Source: Hydrogenophaga sp. (lineage in GTDB: Bacteria > Pseudomonadota > Gammaproteobacteria > Burkholderiales > Burkholderiaceae_C). From it: a DNA stretch of 34,552 bases. The translations under genes were made by a program, and so were the position numbers. The stretch spans positions 1 to 34,552 of the forward strand of contig NZ_JAHVAB010000012.1 in NCBI RefSeq assembly GCF_019264445.1, written 5' to 3'. This document shows, piece by piece, positions 7,112 to 22,300 of this stretch (positions are counted from its first letter, which is position 1; each line of letters opens with the position of its first letter). The notes beneath the pieces are model-generated. The model made no database searches. It was not told the origin of the DNA and saw nothing but the letters and a program-made list of their open reading frames with translations.

Positions 7112-8420
7112 CGCGCTCGCGCACCCGTGCGGGAGGCAGGGCAATCGCGAACGTCGACCCTTCCCCCAGCACGCTCTGCACCTCGATGTGACCACCATGG
7201 CGCTGGGCCACGTGTTTCACGATGGCCAAGCCCAGGCCAGTCCCGCCCGTTTCCCGCGAACGGCTGCGGTCCACACGGTAAAAGCGCTCGGTCAGTCTGG
7301 GAATGTGCTCGGCAGCGATGCCAGGCCCCGTGTCGCTGACGAAGAACTCCACCCAGCCATCGGCGCGCAGTCGCCACCCCGAGCGGATGCGCCCACCACC
7401 GGGTGTGTAGCGCACGGCATTGCTCATCAGGTTCGACATGGCACTGAGCAGTTCGGTGCGGGCACCCGACACCCAGAGATCCGGCCCGGTCATCCGCTCA
7501 ATCTCATGTGGCGTGGGAGAAATGGCGTGCGTCAAGCCTTTGGCTTCCTGCACCACATGGCTCAGGAGCTCTTCGGCGTCAATCCACTCGCCGGGCCCGG
7601 GCGCCGGGCTGCCCTCCAGCCGCGACAGCGTGAGCAAGTCGCTCACCAGCGTTTGCATGCGGTGCGCCTGCTGACTCATCAGGTCCAGATAGCGGGTGCG
7701 GTCGGCTTCCTCCAGCGGAATGCTCTGCATCGTTTCCACGAAGCCGCTGAGCACCGTGAGCGGCGTGCGGATCTCGTGTGAAACGTTCGCCACGAAATCG
7801 CGGCGCATTGCCTCTGCCAACAACACGGCGGTCACGTCTCGCGTGATCATCAGCTTGCGCTTCTTGCCGTACGGATGCACCTGCATCGAAATCTTGGTCG
7901 GCTGCGAGGGCCGCGGACCTGGGCCGTCGATCTGGATCTCATGCCCGAAGTCGCCACCGGCCAGGTAGGCCGTAAAGGCCGGGTTGCGCACCAGGTTGCG
8001 CACGTACTGCCCCAGGTCACGCTGCGGATCAAAACCCAGCTGGTTGGCAGCCGTCAGGTTGGACCACTCGATACGCCCGGACGAATCCAGCAGCACCACG
8101 CCGTTGGGAGACGCCTGAATGGCGGCCAGAAAGTCTTCGAGCCGTGCGTCGCTGCTCTGGGCCTTTTTCTCCAGCTTCTTGATGACCTTGCGGCAACGCT
8201 CGACCAACTCGCCCCAGACACCGCCCAGATTCGGCGCACGGGTGGCCTCGCCCTTGTTGAGCCAGCGCAACACACGCCGCGCGCGAACCCCGTCAAGAAA
8301 GGTCCATGCCAGCGCACCGACCAAAGCGCCTGCAAATGTGATGGCTGGCGACTCCTGTGCCCAACCCCAGACCGCCCCCAATGCGACCAGGAGCAGCAGT
8401 TCGATGGCGCGGCGGGTCAT
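7101..8420 (-). CDS. phoR: phosphate regulon sensor histidine kinase PhoR
   Basis: The 439-residue protein has two short N-terminal membrane helices (about residues 5-20 and 27-43), a charged linker, a PAS domain (about 95-200), the H-box FVANVSHEIRTPL with phospho-acceptor His215, the N-box NLMSNAVRYT, and G-boxes DTGPGIA and GGTGLGLAI. It phosphorylates PhoB when phosphate is scarce, and is held off by the Pst transporter through PhoU when phosphate is plentiful. It lacks a periplasmic sensing domain, as is normal for PhoR. The start overlaps the phoB stop as ATGA, indicating translational coupling. Confidence 0.96.
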   Translation of the reverse strand: MTRRAIELLLLVALGAVWGWAQESPAITFAGALVGALAWTFLDGVRARRVLRWLNKGEATRAPNLGGVWGELVERCRKVIKKLEKKAQSSDARLEDFLAAIQASPNGVVLLDSSGRIEWSNLTAANQLGFDPQRDLGQYVRNLVRNPAFTAYLAGGDFGHEIQIDGPGPRPSQPTKISMQVHPYGKKRKLMITRDVTAVLLAEAMRRDFVANVSHEIRTPLTVLSGFVETMQSIPLEEADRTRYLDLMSQQAHRMQTLVSDLLTLSRLEGSPAPGPGEWIDAEELLSHVVQEAKGLTHAISPTPHEIERMTGPDLWVSGARTELLSAMSNLMSNAVRYTPGGGRIRSGWRLRADGWVEFFVSDTGPGIAAEHIPRLTERFYRVDRSRSRETGGTGLGLAIVKHVAQRHGGHIEVQSVLGEGSTFAIALPPARVRERVNG

Positions 8421-9148
8421 GTGGCCGAGATCGGGGTGCCTTGCGCCGGTTTACCGGTGTGATTCATCGACGTCAGGCGGTAACCGGCGCCACGCACCGT
8501 CTCCACCATGCCGGACGCCTCACCGAGTGATTCCCTCAATCGTTTGACATGCACGTCCACAGTACGCTCCTCGATGAACACATGGTCTCCCCAGACCTTG
8601 TCGAGCAGCGTACCACGCGTGTGCACGCGCTCTGCGTGCTTCATGAGGTAGTGAAGCAATTTGAATTCGGTGGGCCCGACCTTGAGCTCGGCGCCACGGA
8701 AAGTGACGCGATAGGTGGCCGCGTCCAGCGCCAGCTCGCCCACCTGCACGGAGTCGTTGACGATCTCGGGCGCCCGGCGACGCAGCACGGCACGGATGCG
8801 CGCCAGCAACTCCTGGGTGGAGAACGGCTTGGTGATGTAGTCGTCCGCGCCTGCATCGAGCCCTTGCACCTTGTCGCTTTCGTCGCTGCGGGCGGTGAGC
8901 ATGAGGATGGGCACGGTCTTTGTGCGCTCGTTCTTGCGCCACTGCCGCGCCAGCACGGCGCCGCTCTCGCCCGGCAACATCCAGTCGAGCAAGATGACGT
9001 CAGGCAACACGGCGTCGACCTCGCGCTGGGCTGCCGCTCCGTCAAATACCACGGTGGGCGCGAAGCCGTTGTGCCGCAGGTTGACAGCAATCAGTTCGGC
9101 AATGGACGGCTCGTCCTCGACAACGAGCACGCGTGGGAGTTTTCTCAT
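8417..9148 (-). CDS. phoB: phosphate regulon response regulator PhoB
   Basis: The 243-residue protein has an OmpR-class receiver domain with acidic pocket Glu11/Asp12, phosphorylated Asp55 (LLDWMLPG) and Lys107 (TKPF), followed by a winged-helix domain whose ending (ERTVDVHVKRLRESL...VRGAGYRL) is typical of PhoB. Phosphorylated PhoB binds Pho boxes made of 7-bp repeats every 11 bp; such boxes are visible at 13770-13787, 15431-15459 and 18669-18686. The gene overlaps both neighbours (phoU and phoR) by 4 bases. Confidence 0.97.
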   Translation of the reverse strand: MRKLPRVLVVEDEPSIAELIAVNLRHNGFAPTVVFDGAAAQREVDAVLPDVILLDWMLPGESGAVLARQWRKNERTKTVPILMLTARSDESDKVQGLDAGADDYITKPFSTQELLARIRAVLRRRAPEIVNDSVQVGELALDAATYRVTFRGAELKVGPTEFKLLHYLMKHAERVHTRGTLLDKVWGDHVFIEERTVDVHVKRLRESLGEASGMVETVRGAGYRLTSMNHTGKPAQGTPISAT

Positions 9149-9846
9149 CCGACCACCGACTCCACTTCCGACATCGGCGCATGGCGCACATCTTCACCCT
9201 TGACGATGAAGATGATCTGCTCGGCGATGTTCTTGGCATGGTCGCCCACGCGCTCGATCGACTTCGCCAGGAACAGCAGGTCCAGGCTGGGCGAGATGGT
9301 GCGGGGGTCTTCCATCATGTAGGTGATGAGCTTGCGCAGGAAACCGTTGTACTCGTGGTCGATGGCGTCATCGCCTTTGATGATGGCCACCGCCATCGCG
9401 GTATCCAGCCGGGCAAAAGAGTCCAGGGTCTTGCGCAGCAGCGCGGCGGCCAGGTCGGCGGCCATGCGCAACTCCGAGCTGGGCAGGTTGCGTGGCGAGC
9501 CGTTCTGGATGATGGACTTGACCATGCGTGCGATGCGGGCCACCTCGTCGCCGGCGCGCTCCAGGTTCTGCGTGGTGCGCGAGATCGCCATCAGAAACCG
9601 CAGGTCACGTGCCGTGGGCTGGCGGCGGCCAATGGTGGAGATGATCTCGTGATCGATCTGCACCTCCATCTGATTGATGCGCGTCTCGTTCTCCAGGACT
9701 TGCTCAGCCGACTCCTGGCTCATGTGGATCAGCGCATACACCGCCTGGTGCAGCTGGGATTCGACCAGGCCGCCCATTTCGAGCACATGCGTGGAGATGG
9801 AGTTCAGCTCGGCGTCGAACTGACTGGAGATGTGTTTGTCGCTCAT
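9145..9846 (-). CDS. phoU: phosphate transport/signalling regulator PhoU
   Basis: The 233-residue all-helical protein shows two PhoU repeats, each with an acidic metal-binding helix: EVQIDHEIISTIGRRQPTARDLRFLMA and then IKGDDAIDHEYNGFLRKLITYMMEDPRTISPSLDLLF. PhoU binds the Pst transporter and PhoR and mediates phosphate-dependent repression of the Pho regulon. It is 45 bases downstream of pstB and overlaps phoB by 4 bases. Confidence 0.96.
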   Translation of the reverse strand: MSDKHISSQFDAELNSISTHVLEMGGLVESQLHQAVYALIHMSQESAEQVLENETRINQMEVQIDHEIISTIGRRQPTARDLRFLMAISRTTQNLERAGDEVARIARMVKSIIQNGSPRNLPSSELRMAADLAAALLRKTLDSFARLDTAMAVAIIKGDDAIDHEYNGFLRKLITYMMEDPRTISPSLDLLFLAKSIERVGDHAKNIAEQIIFIVKGEDVRHAPMSEVESVVG

Positions 9847-13923: not shown

Positions 13924-15408
13924 ATGCAAAACGGAACCCTCCTCGCCGCCATCGACCTCGGCTCCAACAGCTTCAGGCTGGAAATCGGCCGGTACCAGTC
14001 CGGCCACATCGAGCGCATCGAGTACCTGAAGGAGACGGTGCGCCAGGGGACGGGGCTGGACGAAGAAAAAAACCTCAGCCAGGCGGCCATGGAACGGGGC
14101 TGGGAGTGCCTGGCCCGCTTTGCCGAGCGCCTGCACGGCTTCAAAAAACAACAAGTGCGGGCGGTGGCCACGCAAACCCTGCGGGAAGCGCGCAACCGGG
14201 ACGAGTTCCTGCGCAACGCCCAGACCATTCTGGGCTTCTCGATTGACGTGGTGTCCGGGCACGAAGAGGCACGCCTGATCTACCAGGGCGTCTCGCGGTT
14301 GCTGCCGCACTCAGACGAGAAGCGCCTGGTGGTGGATATTGGCGGACGCTCCACCGAAATGATCCTGGGTCAGGGATACACCGCGCGCAACATGGAGTCG
14401 TACCGGCTGGGCAGCGTGGCCTGGTCCACGCGCTACTTCCCGCGGGGTCAGTTCAGTGCGTCCGCCTTCAAGACCGCTGAAGTGGCGGCCAAGGCCGTGA
14501 TTGACGAGGCGCTGGACAAGTTTCCGCCTGCGGAGTGGACGGTGGCCTACGGATCTTCCGGCACCGTGGGTGCGGTGGCAGACATGCTGGCCGCCAACGG
14601 CTGGGCATCGGGGGTGGTCACCCGCTCTGGTCTGGACTGGTTGACCGACCGCCTGATCAAGGCGGGCAGCGCAGAGCAGATTCGCCTCGAAGGCCTGAAG
14701 GACGACCGGCGCCCGGTCATTGGTGGCGGCGTGAGCGTGCTGCGTGCGATCTTCGACCTGTTCGGCATTGAGCAAATGGTGCCTGCACAAGGCGCCCTGC
14801 GCCATGGCGCGCTGTACGACCTGATCGACCGCGACACCGACGGTGGTGACGTCCGCGAGCGCACCGTGCGCTGGCTGGCCCACCGCTTCTCGGCCGACGA
14901 GGCGCAGGGCAAGCGCGTGAGCGACGTCAGCACGGCCCTCTTCTCGCAGATCGCCGCGCTGGACGCGCAAAACGAGCGCTACTCGCAAAAACTGGCCTGG
15001 GCCGCGCGGCTGCACGAGATCGGCACACACATCTCGCACGAACGATCTCACCACCACGGCGCGTACATCCTGGACAACGTGGACGCACCCGGCTTTTCGC
15101 TGCCCGAACTGCACCGCATGAGCCAGCTGGTGATGGGCCAGCGCGGCAAACTGCGCAAACTCGAGGAAGCGCTGCAGGACGAACTGTTTGCCAAGCAGTT
15201 GATGGTGCTGCGCCTGGCGGTGCTGCTGTGCCATGCACGGCAGATGCCGGAATACCAGTCCATCAAGCTGAGCTACAAGTCACGCGCTTTCAAGCTGTCC
15301 ACCAACCCCGGCTGGGCGAAGCGCTATCCGCAGTCGGCGTGGCTGCTGGGTGAAGAAGTCGTGGCCTGGCAAAAATCGGCCTGGAAATTCACCGCAGACA
15401 TCCGATGA
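13924..15408 (+). CDS. ppx: exopolyphosphatase Ppx (Ppx/GppA family)
   Basis: The 494-residue protein has the sugar-kinase/actin-like fold motifs: the N-terminal phosphate loop AAIDLGSNSFRLEIG (8-22), SGHEEARLIYQGV, and the second phosphate loop VVDIGGRSTEM (usual DIGGGSTE, with Arg replacing one Gly), plus GSSGTVGAVADM. A C-terminal HD-like helical domain contains AARLHEIGTHISHERSHHHGAYIL. It removes terminal phosphates from polyphosphate; GppA-type pppGpp hydrolysis cannot be excluded. It is divergent from pstS. The ATG at 13924 lacks a clear ribosome binding site; it was chosen because homology to the family begins there. I see no convincing Pho box on this strand. Confidence 0.92.
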   Translation: MQNGTLLAAIDLGSNSFRLEIGRYQSGHIERIEYLKETVRQGTGLDEEKNLSQAAMERGWECLARFAERLHGFKKQQVRAVATQTLREARNRDEFLRNAQTILGFSIDVVSGHEEARLIYQGVSRLLPHSDEKRLVVDIGGRSTEMILGQGYTARNMESYRLGSVAWSTRYFPRGQFSASAFKTAEVAAKAVIDEALDKFPPAEWTVAYGSSGTVGAVADMLAANGWASGVVTRSGLDWLTDRLIKAGSAEQIRLEGLKDDRRPVIGGGVSVLRAIFDLFGIEQMVPAQGALRHGALYDLIDRDTDGGDVRERTVRWLAHRFSADEAQGKRVSDVSTALFSQIAALDAQNERYSQKLAWAARLHEIGTHISHERSHHHGAYILDNVDAPGFSLPELHRMSQLVMGQRGKLRKLEEALQDELFAKQLMVLRLAVLLCHARQMPEYQSIKLSYKSRAFKLSTNPGWAKRYPQSAWLLGEEVVAWQKSAWKFTADIR

Positions 15409-15430: not shown

Positions 15431-15459
15431 CTGTCACCGCTTCGTCACGCATTTGTCAT
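15431..15459 (+). promoter_or_regulatory. three-repeat Pho box before the RHH/basic-tail gene
   Basis: Three 7-bp repeats stand in strict 11-bp register: CTGTCAC (15431-15437), TCGTCAC (15442-15448) and TTGTCAT (15453-15459), each separated by 4 bp. This is the PhoB-binding arrangement extended to three half-sites. It points at the gene starting at 15522 and lies just after the ppx stop. The last repeat also contains the -35-like TTGTCA. Confidence 0.82.
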
Positions 15460-15467
15460 AACGGTGT

Positions 15468-15485
15468 AAACGGTATATACCGTTT
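15468..15485 (+). promoter_or_regulatory. perfect 18-bp palindrome over the -10 region (candidate operator)
   Basis: AAACGGTATATACCGTTT is a perfect inverted repeat covering the likely -10 (TATATA, 15474-15479). A further ACGGT half-site lies 9 bp upstream (15461-15465), so ACGGT occurs at 15461 and 15470 and inverted at 15479. A protein bound here would block the promoter. The ribbon-helix-helix-like product of the gene is the obvious candidate, by analogy with autoregulated RHH repressors; not shown. Confidence 0.65.
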
Positions 15486-15521
15486 AAAATTTCACTCCTT
15501 TTCAACCATCGGAGTGAGCAC

Positions 15522-15965
15522 ATGGCCAGTCAGAGCAGCAAATCCAGCCCCAAAAAACCCAAGCTGGTGCGCGACAGCTTCACCATCCCCAAGAACGAGT
15601 TTGCGGCCATCGAGAAGCTCAAGGACCGCGCGATCGCACTGGGCACGAGCGTGAAGAAAAGCGAGCTGTTGCGCGCGGGTTTGATGAGCTTGCAGGGGCT
15701 CGGTGACGCCGCCTACAAAGCAGCGCTGGCCGCTGTACCCACACTGAAGACCGGGCGCCCGGCGGTGACCAACACAAAGGCGGCACCCAAGGCGACAGCA
15801 ACTGCAGCGGCCAAACCCGCTGTAAAGGTGGTCGCCAAATCTGCCGCAAAGCCCGCGACCCCGACAGCCGCCAAGAAGGCGTCCGTCAAAAAGGCGGTCG
15901 CCCCAGTGGCAAGCGCACCGGCACCGCGAGCACGCCGCACCAGCGCAGCGGCCAAAAAGGCTTGA
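15522..15965 (+). CDS. RHH-like DNA-binding protein with AlgP/histone H1-like basic tail
   Basis: The 147-residue protein has three parts. Residues 1-15 are Lys/Ser/Pro rich. Residues 16-60 (VRDSFTIP, then KNEFAAIEKLKDRAIALG, then SVKKSELLRAGLMSL) fit a strand-helix-helix ribbon-helix-helix fold. Residues 80-147 are almost only Ala, Lys, Pro, Val, Thr and Ser, with 12 Lys and 3 Arg and no Asp or Glu, like histone H1-type AlgP tails and the tail of PHB granule protein PhaM. GGAG lies 7 bases before the ATG. Its position between ppx and sixA-ppk and its Pho box suggest a role in DNA and polyphosphate organisation under phosphate starvation. That role is inferred. A general nucleoid protein or a transcription factor are alternatives. 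Confidence 0.75.
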   Translation: MASQSSKSSPKKPKLVRDSFTIPKNEFAAIEKLKDRAIALGTSVKKSELLRAGLMSLQGLGDAAYKAALAAVPTLKTGRPAVTNTKAAPKATATAAAKPAVKVVAKSAAKPATPTAAKKASVKKAVAPVASAPAPRARRTSAAAKKA

Positions 15966-16498: not shown

Positions 16499-18577
16499 TC
16501 AGCCCTTGCTTCCATACAGCGCCATCAGGCTGGCCTGTGCGGAATGAAGCGTCGGGCGCTGGCGGCCATTCGGTTGCGCACTGGCCGGCACGTAAGTGCC
16601 CTCCGGACGCAACAGCCAGGCATCTTTGGTGTCGTGCAGGTAGGCCTGCAGGCATTCGTCGATGATGCGCCGGCGCAGTGCCGCATCCGTCACGGGCCAG
16701 GCCAGTTCGATGCGGCGCAACATGTTGCGGTTCATCCAGTCGGCGCTGGAGAGCCACAGCTCCTCCAGTTCACCTGTACGGAAATAGAACACGCGTGAAT
16801 GCTCGAGCAGCCGGCCAATCACAGACCGCACGCGCACGTTGTCGGTGAAACCGGGCACCTGCGCGGGAAGGATGCAGGCCCCGCGCACGATCAGATCAAT
16901 CTTCACACCGTCCTGCGATGCCATGGCCAGTGCGCGGGCCAGGGGCTCGTCCGTCAGGGCGTTCATCTTGAGGATGATGCGGGCGTCCTGCCCCGCCTTC
17001 GCGGCAGCACCGGCTGCCTCGACCTTGTCGAGCATGGCCTTGTGGAGGTGGAAGGGTGCGATCAACGCCTTGTTGAGTTTGGGCAGCCGGTTCTGGCTGG
17101 CCAGGTGCAGGAAGATCTGCTCGAGGTCGGCGGTGAGCGCGTCGTCGGCCGTGAGGTAGCTCAGGTCGGTGTAGAGCCGTGCCGTGCCCGGGTTGTAGTT
17201 GCCCGTCGAGAGGTGCGCATAGCGGCGCAAGCCGTGCGCCTCGCGGCGAGTCACGAGCAGCATCTTGGCGTGCGTCTTGAGGCCGACCACACCATAGACA
17301 ACCTGCGCCCCCACCGACTCCAGCCGCTCGGCGTAGTTGATGTTGGCCTCCTCGTCAAAGCGCGCCTTCAGCTCCACAACAGCGGTGACTTCCTTGCCGC
17401 GCCGGACCGCTTCGCGCAGCAGGTTCATCAGCTCCGACTTGGCGCCCGTGCGGTAGATCGTCTGCTTGATGGCCAGCACGTCCGGGTCTTCCACCGCCTC
17501 CCGCAAAAAACCCAGCACCGCGTCAAAGCTCTCGTAGGGCTGATGGATCAGCACGTCGCCTTGGCGCAAGCGCTCGAAATAAGACTGCCCCGGCGTGAGC
17601 TGGGCTGGCCAGCCGGCGTTGTAGCTGTCAAAGCGAAGCGCGGGCGCATCCACCTTGTCGATCAGCTGGTTCAGCCGCACCAGGTTCACAGGGCCAGGCA
17701 CACGGTAGAGCGCGCGCTCAGGCAGCGCAAACTGCTCCAGCAAAAAGTCGGACAGATGAACGGAACATCCTGCCGACACCTCCAGCCGCAAGGCCTGCCC
17801 ATAGTGACGCTGCTGCAGGCCCTTGCGCAAGGCCGTGCGCAGGTTCTTCACCTCTTCTTCGTCCACCGCCAGATCGGAATGCCGCGTGACGCGGAACTGC
17901 GAAAACTCCGTCACCTGGCGCCCGGGGAACAGGTCGTTGAGATGCGAGCGGATCAGACTGGAGATGGAGACGAAATGCGTCTGCCTGGAGCCCTTGACCG
18001 GCGGCATGCGAAAGAAGCGCGGCAGAATGCGCGGCACTTTCACGATGGCGATTTCGTTCTCACGCCCGAACGCGTCTTTGCCGGTGAGCCGCACGATGAA
18101 GTTCAGCGACTTGTTGGCCACCTGCGGAAACGGATGGGCAGGATCGAGCCCGACCGGCATCAACAGCGGCTGCACTTCCTTGACAAAAAATTCCTTCACC
18201 CATCGGCGCTGACGCGGATTGCGTTCACCGTGGGAGATCAGCTTGATCCCCTTCTTTTCCAGCAAGGGCAGCAATTCGTCGTTGTAGATCGCGTACTGCT
18301 GCGCCACCAGCGCGTGCACTTCGTCCGAGAGTTGCTCATAGGACTGTGCGGTGTAAGGGCCACGCTGTTCGTTGGCGCGCGCAGCCGTGAGATGCGGAGC
18401 CACTCGGACCTCAAAGAACTCGTCGAGGTTGCTCGACACGATGCTGAGGTAGCGGAGTCGTTCGAGCAGCGGCACATCGGGGCGGCGCGCCCAGTCCATC
18501 ACGCGCGCGTTGAAAGCGAGGATGCTGCGGTCGCGATCCAGGAAAGCTTGCTTGGAATGGAGGGTGTTGCCGCTCAT
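16499..18577 (-). CDS. ppk1: polyphosphate kinase 1
   Basis: The 692-residue protein has the PPK1 domain order: N-terminal helical domain (FLDRDRSILAFNARVMDWA and SIVSSNLDEFFEVRVA), the head domain, and two phospholipase D-like catalytic domains. The autophosphorylated His is His436 in GLKTHAKML, and the second essential His is His455 in RRYAHLSTGNYN. Late conserved blocks are RGACILPAQVPG and LSSADWMNRN. It polymerises ATP gamma-phosphate into polyphosphate at the inner membrane. ATG 18577 gives the family length (E. coli 688); starts further upstream would lie at or before the predicted promoter. A Pho box at 18669-18686 indicates PhoB control. Confidence 0.96.
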   Translation of the reverse strand: MSGNTLHSKQAFLDRDRSILAFNARVMDWARRPDVPLLERLRYLSIVSSNLDEFFEVRVAPHLTAARANEQRGPYTAQSYEQLSDEVHALVAQQYAIYNDELLPLLEKKGIKLISHGERNPRQRRWVKEFFVKEVQPLLMPVGLDPAHPFPQVANKSLNFIVRLTGKDAFGRENEIAIVKVPRILPRFFRMPPVKGSRQTHFVSISSLIRSHLNDLFPGRQVTEFSQFRVTRHSDLAVDEEEVKNLRTALRKGLQQRHYGQALRLEVSAGCSVHLSDFLLEQFALPERALYRVPGPVNLVRLNQLIDKVDAPALRFDSYNAGWPAQLTPGQSYFERLRQGDVLIHQPYESFDAVLGFLREAVEDPDVLAIKQTIYRTGAKSELMNLLREAVRRGKEVTAVVELKARFDEEANINYAERLESVGAQVVYGVVGLKTHAKMLLVTRREAHGLRRYAHLSTGNYNPGTARLYTDLSYLTADDALTADLEQIFLHLASQNRLPKLNKALIAPFHLHKAMLDKVEAAGAAAKAGQDARIILKMNALTDEPLARALAMASQDGVKIDLIVRGACILPAQVPGFTDNVRVRSVIGRLLEHSRVFYFRTGELEELWLSSADWMNRNMLRRIELAWPVTDAALRRRIIDECLQAYLHDTKDAWLLRPEGTYVPASAQPNGRQRPTLHSAQASLMALYGSKG

Positions 18578-18652
18578 GGATGCCGATGGGATCGGGAGGT
18601 TCGCCTGCTGCCCACCGCTCCCGACGGGTGTCTCTTGGCGCACGATGTGTCG

Positions 18653-18686
18653 ATTATTCAACGATACGGTGACGTTTGTGTGACAG
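18653..18686 (-). promoter_or_regulatory. Pho box and -10 of the ppk1 promoter
   Basis: On the minus strand CTGTCAC-ACAA-ACGTCAC (18686-18669) gives two 7-bp repeats spaced by 4 bp. AATAAT (18658-18653) follows after 10 bases, the same spacing as in the pstS promoter. The whole element lies inside the 3' end of the upstream glycosyltransferase gene, with the -10 covering its stop codon. Confidence 0.78.
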
Positions 18687-19754
18687 CGCAGCACCGCCCG
18701 AGGGCACGGGCGCGATGGCCGCGGGCCGTTGACGGCGAGGCCGCGGCAGCACGCTCAGGTGCGCCACAAACAGCGCAGCCGCACGGCCCCATCCAAAATG
18801 CAGCGCCCTGTCACGCGCTTCATGGCGTTTGACCTTGAGCGCATCGCGCCACGCCTGCCCAAGGTCTTCACGCAACGCCCCTGCGCCGCCATGGCCGACC
18901 ACCTGCAAGGGACCATCCACCGGATAGGCCGCCACGGGCACGCCACAGGCCATGGCCTCCAGCATGACGAGGCCAAACGTTTCGCTGCGGCTGGGGAAGA
19001 CGAACACGTCGGCCGCGGCATACACCTGCGCGAGCTCATGGCGAGGCAGCACACCCAGCCAGTGCACGTTGGGGTAACGCTGGCGAAGCGCAGACGCGAG
19101 CGGCCCGACACCGCACACCACCTTGCTGCCGGGCACATCCAGGCGCAGGAAGGCATCGAGGTTTTTTTCATGGGAGAGATGCCCCACGAAAAGGCTGACA
19201 GGGTGCGCAAGCGGGCCCAGCGGTGCATAGACCGTGGGTGGGTCAGCCAGCGCAAACTGGCGCGTGTCCACACCGTGGGTCCAGGCGCGCAGCTGCCCGA
19301 AGCCTCGCCCTCGCAACATGTCCAGCACACCCTGCGTGGGTACCATCACGCCGCAACTAGGGCGGTGAAACCAGCGCAACAAGGCGTAGCCCCACGAAAC
19401 TGGCAGGCGCCACGCGGCATGCGCGATTTCCGGAAACTTGGTGTGAAAGGCCGTGGTGAACGCGAGCTTGCGGCGCAAACAGTAGCGCCTTGCCGCCCAA
19501 CCCAACGGACCTTCGGTGGCGATGTGGATCGCATCGGGTTCGGCCGCCTGCATCAACTCGCGCAAGCGCCGGCCCGGAAACCATGCGATCTGGAGGCCGG
19601 CGTAGCCAGGGCAAGGGCGGGTATGAAACTGACCGGGCTGAATCACCACCACCTCGTGGCCCATGGTCTGCAACTCGCGAGCCAGCTCGACCAGGGTGGT
19701 CACGACGCCATTGACCTGCGGCAGCCACGCATCGGTCACGATCAGAATCTTCAT
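18654..19754 (-). CDS. GT4 family glycosyltransferase, candidate Agt-type glycolipid synthase
   Basis: The 366-residue GT-B protein starts MKILIVTDAWLPQVNGVVTTL, the donor-side glycine loop of GT4 enzymes. It has IHIATEGPLGWAARRYC, AFHTKFPEI and the C-terminal EX7E motif (ETFGLVMLEAMACGVPV). Similar proteins include the alpha-mannosyltransferase and Agt families that glycosylate diacylglycerol. It follows a PlcP-like phospholipase gene by 27 bases, which would supply diacylglycerol, so I infer synthesis of a glycolipid when phosphate is scarce. The sugar and lipid products cannot be told from sequence. The last about 30 residues are Arg/Pro/Ala rich and encode the ppk promoter region. Confidence 0.85.
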   Translation of the reverse strand: MKILIVTDAWLPQVNGVVTTLVELARELQTMGHEVVVIQPGQFHTRPCPGYAGLQIAWFPGRRLRELMQAAEPDAIHIATEGPLGWAARRYCLRRKLAFTTAFHTKFPEIAHAAWRLPVSWGYALLRWFHRPSCGVMVPTQGVLDMLRGRGFGQLRAWTHGVDTRQFALADPPTVYAPLGPLAHPVSLFVGHLSHEKNLDAFLRLDVPGSKVVCGVGPLASALRQRYPNVHWLGVLPRHELAQVYAAADVFVFPSRSETFGLVMLEAMACGVPVAAYPVDGPLQVVGHGGAGALREDLGQAWRDALKVKRHEARDRALHFGWGRAAALFVAHLSVLPRPRRQRPAAIAPVPSGGAALSHKRHRIVE

Positions 19755-19781
19755 GCGCAGTTACCCCGTGACCTGTGGCGA

Positions 19782-20693
19782 TCAGGACGATCGACTGTCA
19801 ACCCGTGTGCCGGCCTCGCTCACCGCCGGCTGGCCTGTTTTGGCCGGGTCACCCCAATGCACCAGCTCCAGGCGACCGTCGAAGTGCTCCACCAGCGCGG
19901 TGAGGCTTTCCACCCAGTCACCGTCGTTGCAATACAGCGTGCCGTCGATGCGGCGCATCTCCGCCCGATGGATGTGGCCGCAGACGACCCCCTGATAGCC
20001 GCGCGAGCGTGCCTCGGCCGCCACGGCACGCTCAAAGTCGGTGACGTAGTTCAGCGCGCTCTTGACCTTGTGCTTGAGGTATTGCGAGAGCGACCAGTAC
20101 GGCAAACCCATGCGCGCGCGCAAGGAGTTGAGGTGGCGGTTCAACCGAAGCGTGAACTCGTACGCGTTGTCACCCAGGTACGCCAGCCACTTGGCGCACT
20201 GGATCACGCCGTCGAAATGATCGCCGTGCACCACCCACAGCCGCTGGCCATCGGCCAGGGTGTGCACCGCCTCGTTGGCGACTTCGATGCCGCCGAAGTT
20301 GTGACCGTCGAACTGGCGGGCAAACTCATCGTGATTGCCAGGCACGAAGACCACCCGACAACCTTTGCGCGAGCGTCGCAGGAGCTTTTGAACGACGTCG
20401 TTGTGCGCTTGCGGCCAATGCCATTTGCGGCGCAGCTGCCAGCCATCAATGATGTCGCCCACGAGGTACAGCGTCTGGCTCGGGTGATGCTTGAGAAAGT
20501 CCAGCAGCGGCCGCGCCTGGCAGCCAGCGGTGCCCAGGTGCAGGTCTGAAATGAAGACGGTGCGGTAGCGGGCGCGCTCACCGGGTTCGGGCGCCTCATC
20601 GTTGTCTGCGTCGCCTGCAGCCCAGACCCCGGCCGCCTCCGGCAGCCCGGACTTGACTGCCCACCCACCGAGGACGTCGACGGCGGTGCGCAT
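19782..20693 (-). CDS. plcP: PlcP/LpxH-type metallophosphoesterase, candidate phospholipase C
   Basis: The 303-residue protein carries the calcineurin-like metal motifs SDLHLG (49-54), VGDIIDGW (78-85), PGNHDEF (118-124), HGDHFD (156-161) and GHIH (239-242). Annotation pipelines usually call this UDP-2,3-diacylglucosamine diphosphatase. Features such as GCQARPLLDFL, WPQAHNDVVQKLL and GDWVES, and GNHD where E. coli LpxH has GNRD, fit the rhizobial PlcP group better, which hydrolyses phosphatidylcholine and other phospholipids to diacylglycerol during phosphate starvation. The PlcP reading comes from recalled family features and from the olsB/GT4 neighbours. ATG 20693 overlaps the upstream stop by one base (TGATG), so the genes are translationally coupled. 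The first 40 residues are a variable extension. Confidence 0.8.
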   Translation of the reverse strand: MRTAVDVLGGWAVKSGLPEAAGVWAAGDADNDEAPEPGERARYRTVFISDLHLGTAGCQARPLLDFLKHHPSQTLYLVGDIIDGWQLRRKWHWPQAHNDVVQKLLRRSRKGCRVVFVPGNHDEFARQFDGHNFGGIEVANEAVHTLADGQRLWVVHGDHFDGVIQCAKWLAYLGDNAYEFTLRLNRHLNSLRARMGLPYWSLSQYLKHKVKSALNYVTDFERAVAAEARSRGYQGVVCGHIHRAEMRRIDGTLYCNDGDWVESLTALVEHFDGRLELVHWGDPAKTGQPAVSEAGTRVDSRSS

Positions 20694-21556
20694 CAAGCCC
20701 CCAGAAAGTGCTTGCGGTAGCGCGCCGGCAAATCGGAGATGCGCATGAGCATCGGAAGATCCGCGGCGTTGAAGTCTGGATCCCAGGCCGGTGGGCCCAG
20801 CACCTTGGCGCCCAGGCGCAGGTAGCCCTTGATCAGCGCGGGCGGCTCCACATCCAATGTGTCGTCCAGTTGCTCGATCGGCAGGGGCAGGCGCGGACGC
20901 ACGTGAAAGTCAATCGGCGCCAGGTGTTTCTCCTTCACCTGCCGCCAGATGCTGGCTGCTGCGTGCCCACCACCGACCACGCCGTGCGGGCCCTCGTGCT
21001 GCATCGGAATGCTGGCGCAGCCGATCATGGTGTCGAGCTGGTTGCGCGTCATGAACTCGGCCAGCGCGCCCCACAGCGCCATGATCACGCCACCGTGCCG
21101 GTGTTCGCGGTGGACACAGCTGCGGCCCAGCTCCACCATGCGGTCGCGCACATGGCGAAGGCGGGTCAGGTCAAACTCGGTGTCGCTGTAGGTGCTGCCC
21201 ACCCGCTTGGCCTGCGCCGGCGTCAGCACACGGTAGGTGCCGATCACTCGGCGGCTGGTAGCGTCGCGCACCAGAATGTGCTCGCAGAAATCGTCAAACA
21301 GGTCCACATCGTGGCCAGGCAGGTGTTGCGGCAGTCGCGCTCCCATCTCTGTGGCAAACACCGAATACCTCAGCTGCTGCGCTTCGCGAACCTCGTCCAG
21401 ATGCCGCGCCCACGAGACATCGATGCCACCGGCTTCGGATGCGCCCGACGCTTGGCCCACCAGAGACGAGGCGGTGATAACCGAGCGGGGATGAAGCGAC
21501 CCCCTGGGCAGGTTCACGGGCGAGAGATCGAGCGTGGGGGTGGGCAGTTCTTTCAT
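20693..21556 (-). CDS. OlsB-like N-acyltransferase (GNAT/hemolysin-type)
   Basis: From ATG 21556 (GGAG seven bases upstream) the protein has 287 residues. It shows the acyl-ACP-dependent GNAT pattern: EVREAQQLRYSVFATEMGA, DLFDDFCEHILVRD, RVIGTYRVLTPAQA, then VELGRSCVHREHRHGGVIMALWGALAEFM, followed by IGCASIPM. This matches OlsB, which makes lyso-ornithine lipid from ornithine and 3-hydroxyacyl-ACP, the first step to phosphorus-free ornithine lipids. No OlsA acyltransferase gene is in the window. The protein ends 1 base into plcP, forming an operon with plcP and the GT4 gene. A longer start at 21616 is possible but lacks a ribosome binding site. Confidence 0.82.
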   Translation of the reverse strand: MKELPTPTLDLSPVNLPRGSLHPRSVITASSLVGQASGASEAGGIDVSWARHLDEVREAQQLRYSVFATEMGARLPQHLPGHDVDLFDDFCEHILVRDATSRRVIGTYRVLTPAQAKRVGSTYSDTEFDLTRLRHVRDRMVELGRSCVHREHRHGGVIMALWGALAEFMTRNQLDTMIGCASIPMQHEGPHGVVGGGHAAASIWRQVKEKHLAPIDFHVRPRLPLPIEQLDDTLDVEPPALIKGYLRLGAKVLGPPAWDPDFNAADLPMLMRISDLPARYRKHFLGA

Positions 21557-21662
21557 GGCGCGCTCCGTGGACGGTGCACCCGACGGGGGTGCGTAGATGA
21601 ATGCAGGCGTGGTCATGAAAAGGCAGTGTGCGAATGCCGGGTGACTCCCGCATGGCGAATGC

Positions 21663-21680
21663 ATGAACTTTTGGTGACAC
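21663..21680 (-). promoter_or_regulatory. degenerate Pho-box-like repeat upstream of the olsB-like operon
   Basis: On the minus strand GTGTCAC (21680-21674), 4 bp, then AGTTCAT (21669-21663) keeps the 7+4+7 spacing, but the second repeat matches the consensus at only four of seven positions. No good -10 follows at the 10-base distance seen at pstS and ppk. It is recorded as a weak candidate. Confidence 0.3.
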
Positions 21681-21714
21681 ACGGGCACGGCAGAGCCTGC
21701 GTCAGGCGCCCTGC

Positions 21715-21720
21715 CAAAAT
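21715..21720 (+). promoter_or_regulatory. -10-like CAAAAT seven bases before a GTG start
   Basis: CAAAAT ends seven bases before the GTG at 21728, and no Shine-Dalgarno sequence is visible between them. If used as a -10, transcription would begin at the start codon. The -35 region shows no match. Confidence 0.3.
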
Positions 21721-21727
21721 ACGGGCT

Positions 21728-22300
21728 GTGACCCATCCAGCCCCTTCCCTGCGCGCAACGCTGCGCTGTCACGCGGCCACCCCGGCAAGCCTCCCACTGT
21801 CCGTCACTGCAGAGGTCCAGGCTCAGGCCGATGCCCTGCGCCTTCGTTACACCTTGCGCGGCGACACCCGCTTGCTGCGCGTTCCCGCGCCCACCGCGCC
21901 GGTGCCCACCGATGGCCTGTGGCGCCACACGTGCTTCGAAGCTTTTGTCGCGGTTGGCGACGAGCCCGCGTACCGCGAATTCAACTTCTCGCCATCCAGT
22001 GCGTGGGCGGCTTACCGCTTTTCTTCCGAGCGTCAGCGCGACGAAGGCGCCGAAGCGCGCGAACGCGTGTTGTTGCGGCCACCCCAAGTCACCCTCACGC
22101 CGCAGGCCATCACGCTCACGGTGCGTGTACCGGCCACGGCGCTGCCCCGCAGCCCTGCGGTGCTGTCGCTGGGTTTGTGCGCCGTGATTGAAGAGCACGA
22201 TGGCCGTTTGAGCTACTGGGCGCTGCACCATCCCGCTGCGCACGCCGATTTCCACCACCGCGACGGTCGCACGCTGCGGCTCGCCGCGCCTTTGAGCTGA
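21728..22300 (+). CDS. DOMON-like domain protein
   Basis: The 190-residue protein (VTHPAPSLRATLRCH...) looks like a single beta-sandwich: alternating hydrophobic strands, DGLWRHTCFEAFVAVGDEPAYREFNFSPSSAWAAYRFSSERQRD and later YWALHHPAAHADFHHRDG. Proteins of this pattern are annotated as DOMON-like, a fold related to sugar- and haem-binding modules. No signal peptide is seen and no ligand can be named. GTG 21728 is the only start giving a protein without the antisense of the olsB-like gene. It ends five bases before the NamZ gene, so the two are likely one operon; a joint role in cell-wall sugar recovery is a guess from that context. Confidence 0.65.
   Translation: MTHPAPSLRATLRCHAATPASLPLSVTAEVQAQADALRLRYTLRGDTRLLRVPAPTAPVPTDGLWRHTCFEAFVAVGDEPAYREFNFSPSSAWAAYRFSSERQRDEGAEARERVLLRPPQVTLTPQAITLTVRVPATALPRSPAVLSLGLCAVIEEHDGRLSYWALHHPAAHADFHHRDGRTLRLAAPLS

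What the first reader, a model, noticed from the sequence alone, without database searches (positions are those of the whole stretch)
15431..15965. PhoB-controlled RHH protein with a polycationic tail, sitting between ppx and sixA-ppk1
The sequence shows a small RHH-like head (16-60) joined to a 68-residue Lys/Ala/Pro tail with 15 basic and no acidic residues, placed inside the polyphosphate gene group, with three Pho-box repeats in exact 11-bp register in front. Basic H1-like tails bind polyanions, and related architectures (AlgP, PhaM) are linked to storage granules and the nucleoid. I infer a protein made when phosphate falls that holds DNA with its head and polyphosphate or DNA with its tail, coordinating granule placement or polyP/DNA competition. 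I know of no named function for this exact architecture.
Basis: partly seen in the sequence, partly recalled or inferred. Interest (0 to 1): 0.82.

Follow-up and report, generated by a model that had tools for sequence, protein, structure and literature searches.

The report
Self-controlled DNA-binding protein beside polyphosphate genes
A small unnamed bacterial protein, with a predicted DNA-gripping head and a strongly positive arm that changes ends between species, sits again and again beside the genes that make and break the phosphate store polyphosphate; a conserved repeat array stands in front of its own gene, which it likely uses to control itself, and it would tie polyphosphate granules to the chromosome.

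Summary
The gene (15522-15965) lies between ppx and sixA-ppk1, has 15 basic and no acidic residues in its arm, and has three Pho-box repeats at 11-bp spacing (17 of 18 core letters). Two things were missed. (1) Beside the Pho box lies an array of three 8-bp near-palindromes, GTWTAWAC, at 9-bp period. It occurs before 159 of 184 non-redundant members (0.33 expected). Of 31 exact cores in 250 family genomes, 26 sit at this gene, so it is probably the protein's own operator. (2) The arm is N-terminal in most relatives (124 N, 41 C, 20 both, 1 none of 186). Linkage to ppx/sixA/ppk1/phoU/pstS within 5 kb holds for 35 of 60 order-wide loci in 10 of 18 families, in different arrangements. Pho boxes are mostly limited to the genus (15 of 33 against 5 of 151). 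Some relatives adjoin a ParA ATPase. The window protein has no Pfam or NCBIfam match. Best reading: an autorepressing RHH protein whose arm binds polyP, working like PhaR and AlgP for polyphosphate. PolyP binding, granule location and autorepression are inferred, not shown.

The parts
15522..15965 (+). CDS of the RHH-like head plus C-terminal polycationic arm protein, 147 aa
   Evidence: ORF list and sequence; 128 of 250 family genomes carry the head
15432..15459 (+). Pho box: three TGTCAY-type repeats at 11-bp spacing
   Evidence: 17 of 18 core letters; 15 of 33 genus promoters at 15 or more (0.03 expected)
15464..15489. operator-like array: GTGTAAAC-g-GTATATAC-c-GTTTAAAA, three 8-bp units at 9-bp period (22 of 24 to GTWTAWAC, counted by hand)
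   Evidence: 159 of 184 non-redundant promoters score 18 or more of 24 (0.33 expected), with a sharp 9-bp period; own genome: with at most 1 mismatch the pattern is found only here
15555..15731 (+). RHH-like head, residues 12-70: ribbon segment KPKLVRDSFTIP, helices 24-39, 46-58, 62-70
   Evidence: AF2 model; conservation in 196 sequences; RHH Pfam hits among relatives
15747..15761 (+). KTGRP motif (residues 76-80), AT-hook-like GRP core
   Evidence: 93-100% per position in the alignment of 196 family sequences; the AT-hook reading is recalled knowledge
15762..15962 (+). polycationic Lys/Ala/Pro arm, residues 81-147
   Evidence: 12 K, 3 R, 0 D, 0 E; net charge positive in 182 of 185 members with an arm
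13924..15408 (+). ppx, exopolyphosphatase
   Evidence: Pfam Ppx-GppA 2.7e-71, TIGR03706 313 bits
15997..16515 (-). sixA-like histidine phosphatase, convergent
   Evidence: His_Phos_1 8.1e-11; TIGR00249 61 bits, below its 74.5 cut-off
16499..18694 (-). ppk1, polyphosphate kinase (the listed ORF may start upstream of the true start)
   Evidence: TIGR03705 6.9e-258
8417..9148 (-). phoB response regulator
   Evidence: Response_reg and Trans_reg_C domains; next to phoU 9145-9846 (PhoU domain)

Best explanation
This is a small protein with a predicted ribbon-helix-helix head and a polycationic arm, encoded inside the polyphosphate gene group behind a Pho box and a conserved repeat array, which likely represses its own promoter through that array and would use the arm to hold polyphosphate granules against the chromosome. 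Mechanism, with status: (1) RHH dimers stack on the three near-palindromic 8-bp units and block the promoter (inferred from the array, its 9-bp period and its restriction to this gene). (2) PhoB activates from the abutting Pho box when phosphate falls (inferred, mainly for this genus). (3) The arm, whose side varies but whose charge is kept, binds polyP or DNA (inferred from composition and from AlgP). (4) When polyP accumulates it pulls the protein off the array, so more is made until the granule is coated, as PhaR does for PHB (inferred by analogy).
For: Array: 159 of 184 non-redundant promoters against 0.33 expected; 9-bp period mean 19.96 of 24 against 15.8 or less for the five other periods tried. 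Upstream of the neighbours it scores 18 or more in 0 of 78 ppk1, 0 of 43 phoU, 1 of 71 ppx, 1 of 46 pstS and 7 of 133 sixA; of these nine, seven are the gene's own array in a shared divergent promoter (6 sixA, 1 pstS), an eighth (L213) seems to be that too with the gene's start called too early, and one ppx is separate. Exact cores in 250 genomes (128 of which carry the gene): 31 sites in 30 genomes, 26 within 500 bp of the gene, reversed-pattern control 0. Linkage: 35 of 60 order-wide loci and 10 of 18 families within 5 kb of ppx/sixA/ppk1/phoU/pstS, 74 of 80 named loci, in different arrangements. Plasmid copies sit beside a CHAD gene and beside phoU; chromosomal ones beside CYTH-CHAD and beside PhoX. 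Arm: 185 of 186 have one, net charge above 0 in 182 of 185, side changes. Pho box. AlgP, with a KPAA-rich tail, sits on polyP granules and needs the tail for spacing (PMC9239181, passages). PhaR leaves its promoter for PHB granules (PMC3079617, passages).
Against: No direct evidence for polyP binding, granule location or repression. 25 of 60 order-wide loci show none of the five test genes within 5 kb. Total arm charge does not differ between 110 linked and 31 unlinked members (p 0.56; charge per residue p 0.046). 5 of 185 arms are below +5, and at least one of these (L063, the same gene as in L298) is at a sixA-ppk1 locus. Three armless heads of one genus keep an operator-like array at 18-19 of 24. 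25 of 184 promoters score below 18. The fold match to RHH structures is weak. The -10 box was not assigned and no sigma-70-like site was found.
Confidence: 0.5

Rival explanations
1. A ParG/omega-like adaptor of a ParA ATPase: the head binds the repeat array as a centromere-like site and autorepresses, and the arm stimulates a small ParA that moves DNA or another cargo; the polyP neighbourhood is secondary.
For: A ParA-type gene begins 0-41 bp after the gene (alignment starts) in L109, L292, L293, L295, L296, L297 and L301; it is divergent in L171 and L174; other ParA types neighbour L218, L220 and L291. Calothrix plasmid copy beside a ParA/CbiA-type ATPase. ParA in 52 of 66 genomes with the gene against 97 of 234 without (not corrected for kinship). 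Omega is an RHH ParB on 7-bp repeats over its own promoter (PMC9499535, passages).
Against: The loci with an adjacent ParA show none of the five polyP/Pho test genes in the fetched stretch, and in the window genome the nearest ParA relative lies on another contig. Only three full units here, whereas omega needs four or more repeats to activate its ParA well. The second batch of loci was hand-picked, so its ParA count is no rate.
Confidence: 0.2
2. A conventional transcription factor that controls ppk1, ppx, sixA or phoU in answer to phosphate.
For: Conserved neighbourhood, predicted DNA-binding head, Pho box; in 6 of 60 order-wide loci the array lies between the gene and a divergent sixA, which it could control too.
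Against: The array is missing before ppk1 (0 of 78) and phoU (0 of 43) and, apart from shared promoters, nearly always before ppx, pstS and sixA; exact cores outside the gene are few (5 of 31 sites).
Confidence: 0.1
3. A general H1-like nucleoid protein whose place in the Pho region reflects regulation by phosphate rather than a role with polyP.
For: The arm resembles histone H1 tails and AlgP; the KTGRP motif looks like an AT-hook (recalled); linkage is not universal (25 of 60 unlinked).
Against: Self-specific array and repeated proximity, in different arrangements, to polyP enzymes, phoU and CHAD genes, mostly without a Pho box.
Confidence: 0.15

Closest known systems
AlgP of Pseudomonas aeruginosa (polyP granule spacing; PMC9239181, passages read)
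   Same: Lys/Ala/Pro H1-like disordered tail; polyP context
   Different: AlgP is described with a predicted helical N-terminal domain and a 154-aa KPAA repeat region; here a predicted RHH head, a self-specific array, a shorter arm that can lie on either end, and placement beside ppk1/ppx
PhaR of Ralstonia eutropha / Paracoccus denitrificans (PHB-titrated autoregulator; PMC3079617, passages read)
   Same: Proposed logic: DNA-binding part plus storage-polymer-binding part, repression of its own promoter released by the polymer
   Different: PhaR binds PHB and also controls phaP; here the polymer would be polyanionic and the only clear target is the gene itself
Omega (RHH ParB) with Delta (ParA) of pSM19035 (PMC9499535, passages read)
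   Same: RHH-type head, tandem short repeats over its own promoter, ParA neighbour in some relatives
   Different: Units are 8-bp near-palindromes at 9-bp period, three in number, not 7-10 non-palindromic heptads; the window copy has no ParA beside it
MetJ (RHH repressor on tandem 8-bp met boxes; recalled)
   Same: Tandem palindromic 8-bp units expected to be bound by stacked dimers
   Different: No S-adenosylmethionine theme, a polycationic arm, one clear target
PhaM / PhaF (PHB granule-nucleoid tethers; review PMC13052382, passages read)
   Same: One protein that binds both a granule and DNA, with a histone-like part
   Different: PHB-binding parts were not looked for here; the head here is RHH-like and the gene sits with polyP genes

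Membership tests
Ribbon-helix-helix superfamily | ribbon followed by two helices in a small dimeric head | tested here: inconclusive
Ribbon-helix-helix superfamily | operator of short tandem or inverted repeats | tested here: met
   three GTWTAWAC units at 9-bp period in 159 of 184 promoters; binding itself untested
PhoB regulon | Pho box of 11-bp direct repeats before the gene | tested here: met
   17 of 18 in the window; 15 of 33 in the genus; 5 of 151 elsewhere
PhoB regulon | induction on phosphate limitation | not testable with these tools
   needs expression data
AlgP-like polyP granule proteins | Lys/Ala/Pro-rich basic tail | tested here: met
   arm composition A 29.5, K 17.4, P 14.3 percent over the arms of 185 members; disorder itself not computed
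AlgP-like polyP granule proteins | location on polyP granules | not testable with these tools
   needs microscopy
ParABS with RHH ParB (omega/ParG type) | cognate ParA gene next to the RHH gene | tested here: not met
   no ParA beside the window gene; nearest relative on another contig. Met only in some relatives
Type II antitoxins of RHH type (ParD, CopG-like) | toxin gene next door | tested here: not met
   neighbours are ppx and sixA
AT-hook proteins | GRP core flanked by basic residues | tested here: inconclusive
   KTGRP 93-100% per position in 196; no AT_hook family among the 15 families listed

The most novel reading that the evidence does not exclude
An ATP-driven positioning system for polyphosphate granules: the RHH-plus-arm protein coats or grips polyP, a small ParA-type ATPase on the nucleoid moves it, and the repeat array at its own promoter sets its dose and anchors the complex at the polyP locus.
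Probability: 0.18. Interest if true: 0.9.

Novelty: new variant of a known kind. Interest (0 to 1): 0.7.

Why it matters
How polyP granules are placed and counted is open: a 2025 review lists AlgP alone for polyP and says it remains to be seen whether energy is needed (PMC13052382, passages). Here is a family whose window member matches no Pfam or NCBIfam model, present in 128 of 250 sampled family genomes, tied to ppk1/ppx/phoU in many arrangements, with a self-specific array and some ParA-linked members. It gives a single-gene handle for testing polymer-titrated autoregulation and granule tethering in Burkholderiales.

Tried and rejected
Regulator of ppk/ppx: rejected as the main role, since the array is not found before them apart from shared promoters. 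RHH antitoxin: rejected, no toxin next door. Family-wide PhoB control: rejected (5 of 151 outside the genus). 'Linked members have more charged arms': not supported for total charge (p 0.56), weak per residue (p 0.046). PDB sequence searches gave nothing useful. That the fold search lists only three RHH chains is no evidence against the fold. The tree of the 78-column head is poorly resolved (20 of 182 inner branches starred), so the 9 side changes of the arm are a parsimony count, not 9 shown events. Sigma-70 scan: no promoter-like site, no conclusion drawn. PHROGs: only chance-level hits among 17 heads.

Rows dropped before counts: 9 of the 69 places were not fetched (the window's own, one same-genus, seven others), leaving 60. 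One search used 184 and one search used 186 of the 196 loci, after removal of identical proteins and of short upstreams or cut genes. The start codon was chosen by a simple rule, and at least one (L213) seems wrong. The 40 regions were hand-picked (second copies, armless, unlinked), one of them without the gene (L299), so they give examples and no rates. For neighbours of unlinked loci, 77 of the 106 listed adjacent ORFs were scanned as a set, which names families but not members; 26 more single scans of that set are with others besides. Of 14 plasmid records hit, 10 were opened, four of them without gene annotation at the place.

Literature: (ribbon-helix-helix + polyphosphate + ppk) 0 papers; (ribbon-helix-helix + AT-hook) 0; (para + ribbon-helix-helix + polyphosphate) 20 papers, 8 listed, none by title about this; (ParA, polyphosphate granule, positioning) 29, 12 listed. 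The library is open-licence only, so absence there is no proof. Papers seen as passages: PMC13052382, PMC9499535, PMC9239181, PMC3079617. CHAD as a polyP-binding domain: abstract start of PMC6537752 in a search listing only.

Full report
What is there. The ORF 15522-15965 codes for 147 residues. It follows ppx on the same strand, and the sixA and ppk1 genes converge on it; phoR, phoB, phoU and the pst genes lie further upstream on the other strand. The window protein has no Pfam or NCBIfam match. The head was found in 52 of 67 genomes of the genus, 128 of 250 of the family, 66 of 300 of the order, and in 11 of 349 of the phylum, all 11 in the order. A plasmid search with another member gave hits in 14 records, two of them outside the order: Calothrix and Thiomicrorhabdus.

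Head. In 196 aligned members the ribbon segment R-D-S-F-T-x-P, the helix start K-K-S-E-x-x-R-A-G and a closing K-T-G-R-P are each kept at 93% or more per named position. AF2 gives three helices after the ribbon segment. Fold and profile matches point to RHH but are weak. The alternate residues R17, S19 and T21 are where RHH proteins touch bases (recalled). GRP is the core of AT-hooks (recalled).

Arm. Of 186 complete non-redundant proteins, 124 carry the arm N-terminally, 41 C-terminally, 20 on both sides and 1 on neither; over the 185 with an arm the median is 78 aa and net charge +14, positive in 182. On the head tree the side changes at least 9 times by parsimony, but the tree is weak. Charge is kept while position is not, which suits binding to a polyanion rather than to a shaped partner (inference).

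Array. Before 159 of 184 non-redundant members stands an array of three GTWTAWAC units at 9-bp period; 0.33 were expected from order-1 random sequence, and none of five other periods comes near. The consensus over the 119 best is AAcgGTATAAACtGTATATACtGTTTATACcgTT. It ends mostly 10-39 bp before the start codon (142 of 159). Exact cores in 250 family genomes number 31 in 30 genomes, of which 26 lie within 500 bp of this gene; the reversed pattern gives none. In the window's genome only this promoter matches at up to one mismatch, with one unrelated place at two. Before ppk1 and phoU it is absent (0 of 78, 0 of 43); of nine hits before sixA, ppx and pstS, seven are the gene's own array seen from a divergent neighbour, L213 probably also, and one (ppx of L170) is separate. 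So the protein most likely controls itself and little else. The ten plasmid copies opened score 16-20 of 24, and three armless heads of another genus 18-19; these two sets were not run against shuffles.

Pho box. Three repeats at 11 bp end 4 bp before the array. They are common in the genus (15 of 33) and rare elsewhere (5 of 151). PhoB control is thus probably a local addition to a self-controlled gene.

Neighbourhood. Within 5 kb, 35 of 60 order-wide loci (10 of 18 families) and 74 of 80 named loci have ppx, sixA, ppk1, phoU or pstS. The arrangements differ: ppx-gene-sixA-ppk1; sixA divergent with ppk1 convergent; gene followed by phoU and ppx; pstS next door. As a rough estimate of mine, five such genes with 5 kb on each side cover at most about 1.5% of a 4-Mb genome. 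Copies on plasmids lie beside a CHAD gene (L315) and beside phoU (L317); chromosomal ones beside CYTH-CHAD and CorA (L277), PhoX and phytase-like (L287) and PhaC (L303).

ParA. In seven loci (L109, L292, L293, L295, L296, L297, L301) a ParA-type gene begins 0-41 bp after the gene by alignment; in L171 and L174 it is divergent; other ParA types neighbour L218, L220 and L291, and the Calothrix plasmid copy. L072 duplicates L109. None of these adjacent cases shows the five polyP/Pho genes in the stretch fetched. However, seven polyP loci hold a ParA further off: L140 at 6.4 kb, and L112, L117, L120, L124, L148 and L163 (Limnohabitans and kin) at 6.8-8.4 kb, the latter 65-72% identical to the ParA beside L220. 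ParA of the L171 type occurs in 52 of 66 genomes with the gene and 97 of 234 without, uncorrected for kinship.

How it likely works. RHH dimers on the array would hold the promoter down; in this genus PhoB would lift it when phosphate falls. The arm would bind polyP; the similar tail of AlgP is needed for granule spacing (PMC9239181). Binding to polyP would take the protein off its operator, matching its amount to the polymer, as PhaR does with PHB (PMC3079617). Shown: the gene, the array and its near-restriction to this gene, the Pho box, the linkage, and the kept charge with changing side. Inferred: RHH dimerisation, repression, PhoB activation, polyP binding, titration, tethering.

Verdict. 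The family is unnamed in the libraries searched and makes polyP-titrated autoregulation directly testable.

Noticed in passing
L292, L293, L295, L296, L297, L301, L109: Members of the family in tight pairs with a small ParA ATPase (0-41 bp), five of them in the window's genus; G319 and G361 also hold a second copy of the family elsewhere.
   Followed up: partly
L112, L117, L120, L124, L148, L163; L140: ParA-type genes 6.4-8.4 kb from the gene in the same stretch as sixA-ppk1 (and ppx in six of seven).
   Followed up: partly
L249:1501 (G524:C21:77884): An exact operator core stands about 360 bp beyond the end of a ppx reading frame without the gene behind it; the gene lies 9.4 kb away beside sixA-ppk1 with a weaker array, as if an insertion had split them.
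   Followed up: partly
L271, L272, L273: Armless heads of 83-85 aa in one genus, operator-like array kept (18-19 of 24), none of the tested polyP/Pho genes in the stretch.
   Followed up: partly
L315, L277: Family members next to CHAD or CYTH-CHAD genes (CHAD binds polyP, PMC6537752 listing).
   Followed up: partly
L303 (L302 has an ORF of the same length): Family member next to a PHB synthase (PhaC) gene; a PHB link as well as a polyP link is possible.
   Followed up: partly
L311:3848-4297: Comamonas aquatica plasmid copy directly after arsABCH, near an IS66 element.
   Followed up: no
L312:3842-4213: Cyanobacterial (Calothrix) plasmid member whose N-terminal arm is not Lys/Ala/Pro-rich, with an operator-like array of 20 of 24 and a divergent ParA-type gene.
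   Followed up: partly
18654-22258: Beyond ppk1 the glycosyltransferase, metallophosphoesterase and acetyltransferase-like genes recur beside ppk1 in many Comamonadaceae loci, a conserved block not explained here.
   Followed up: no
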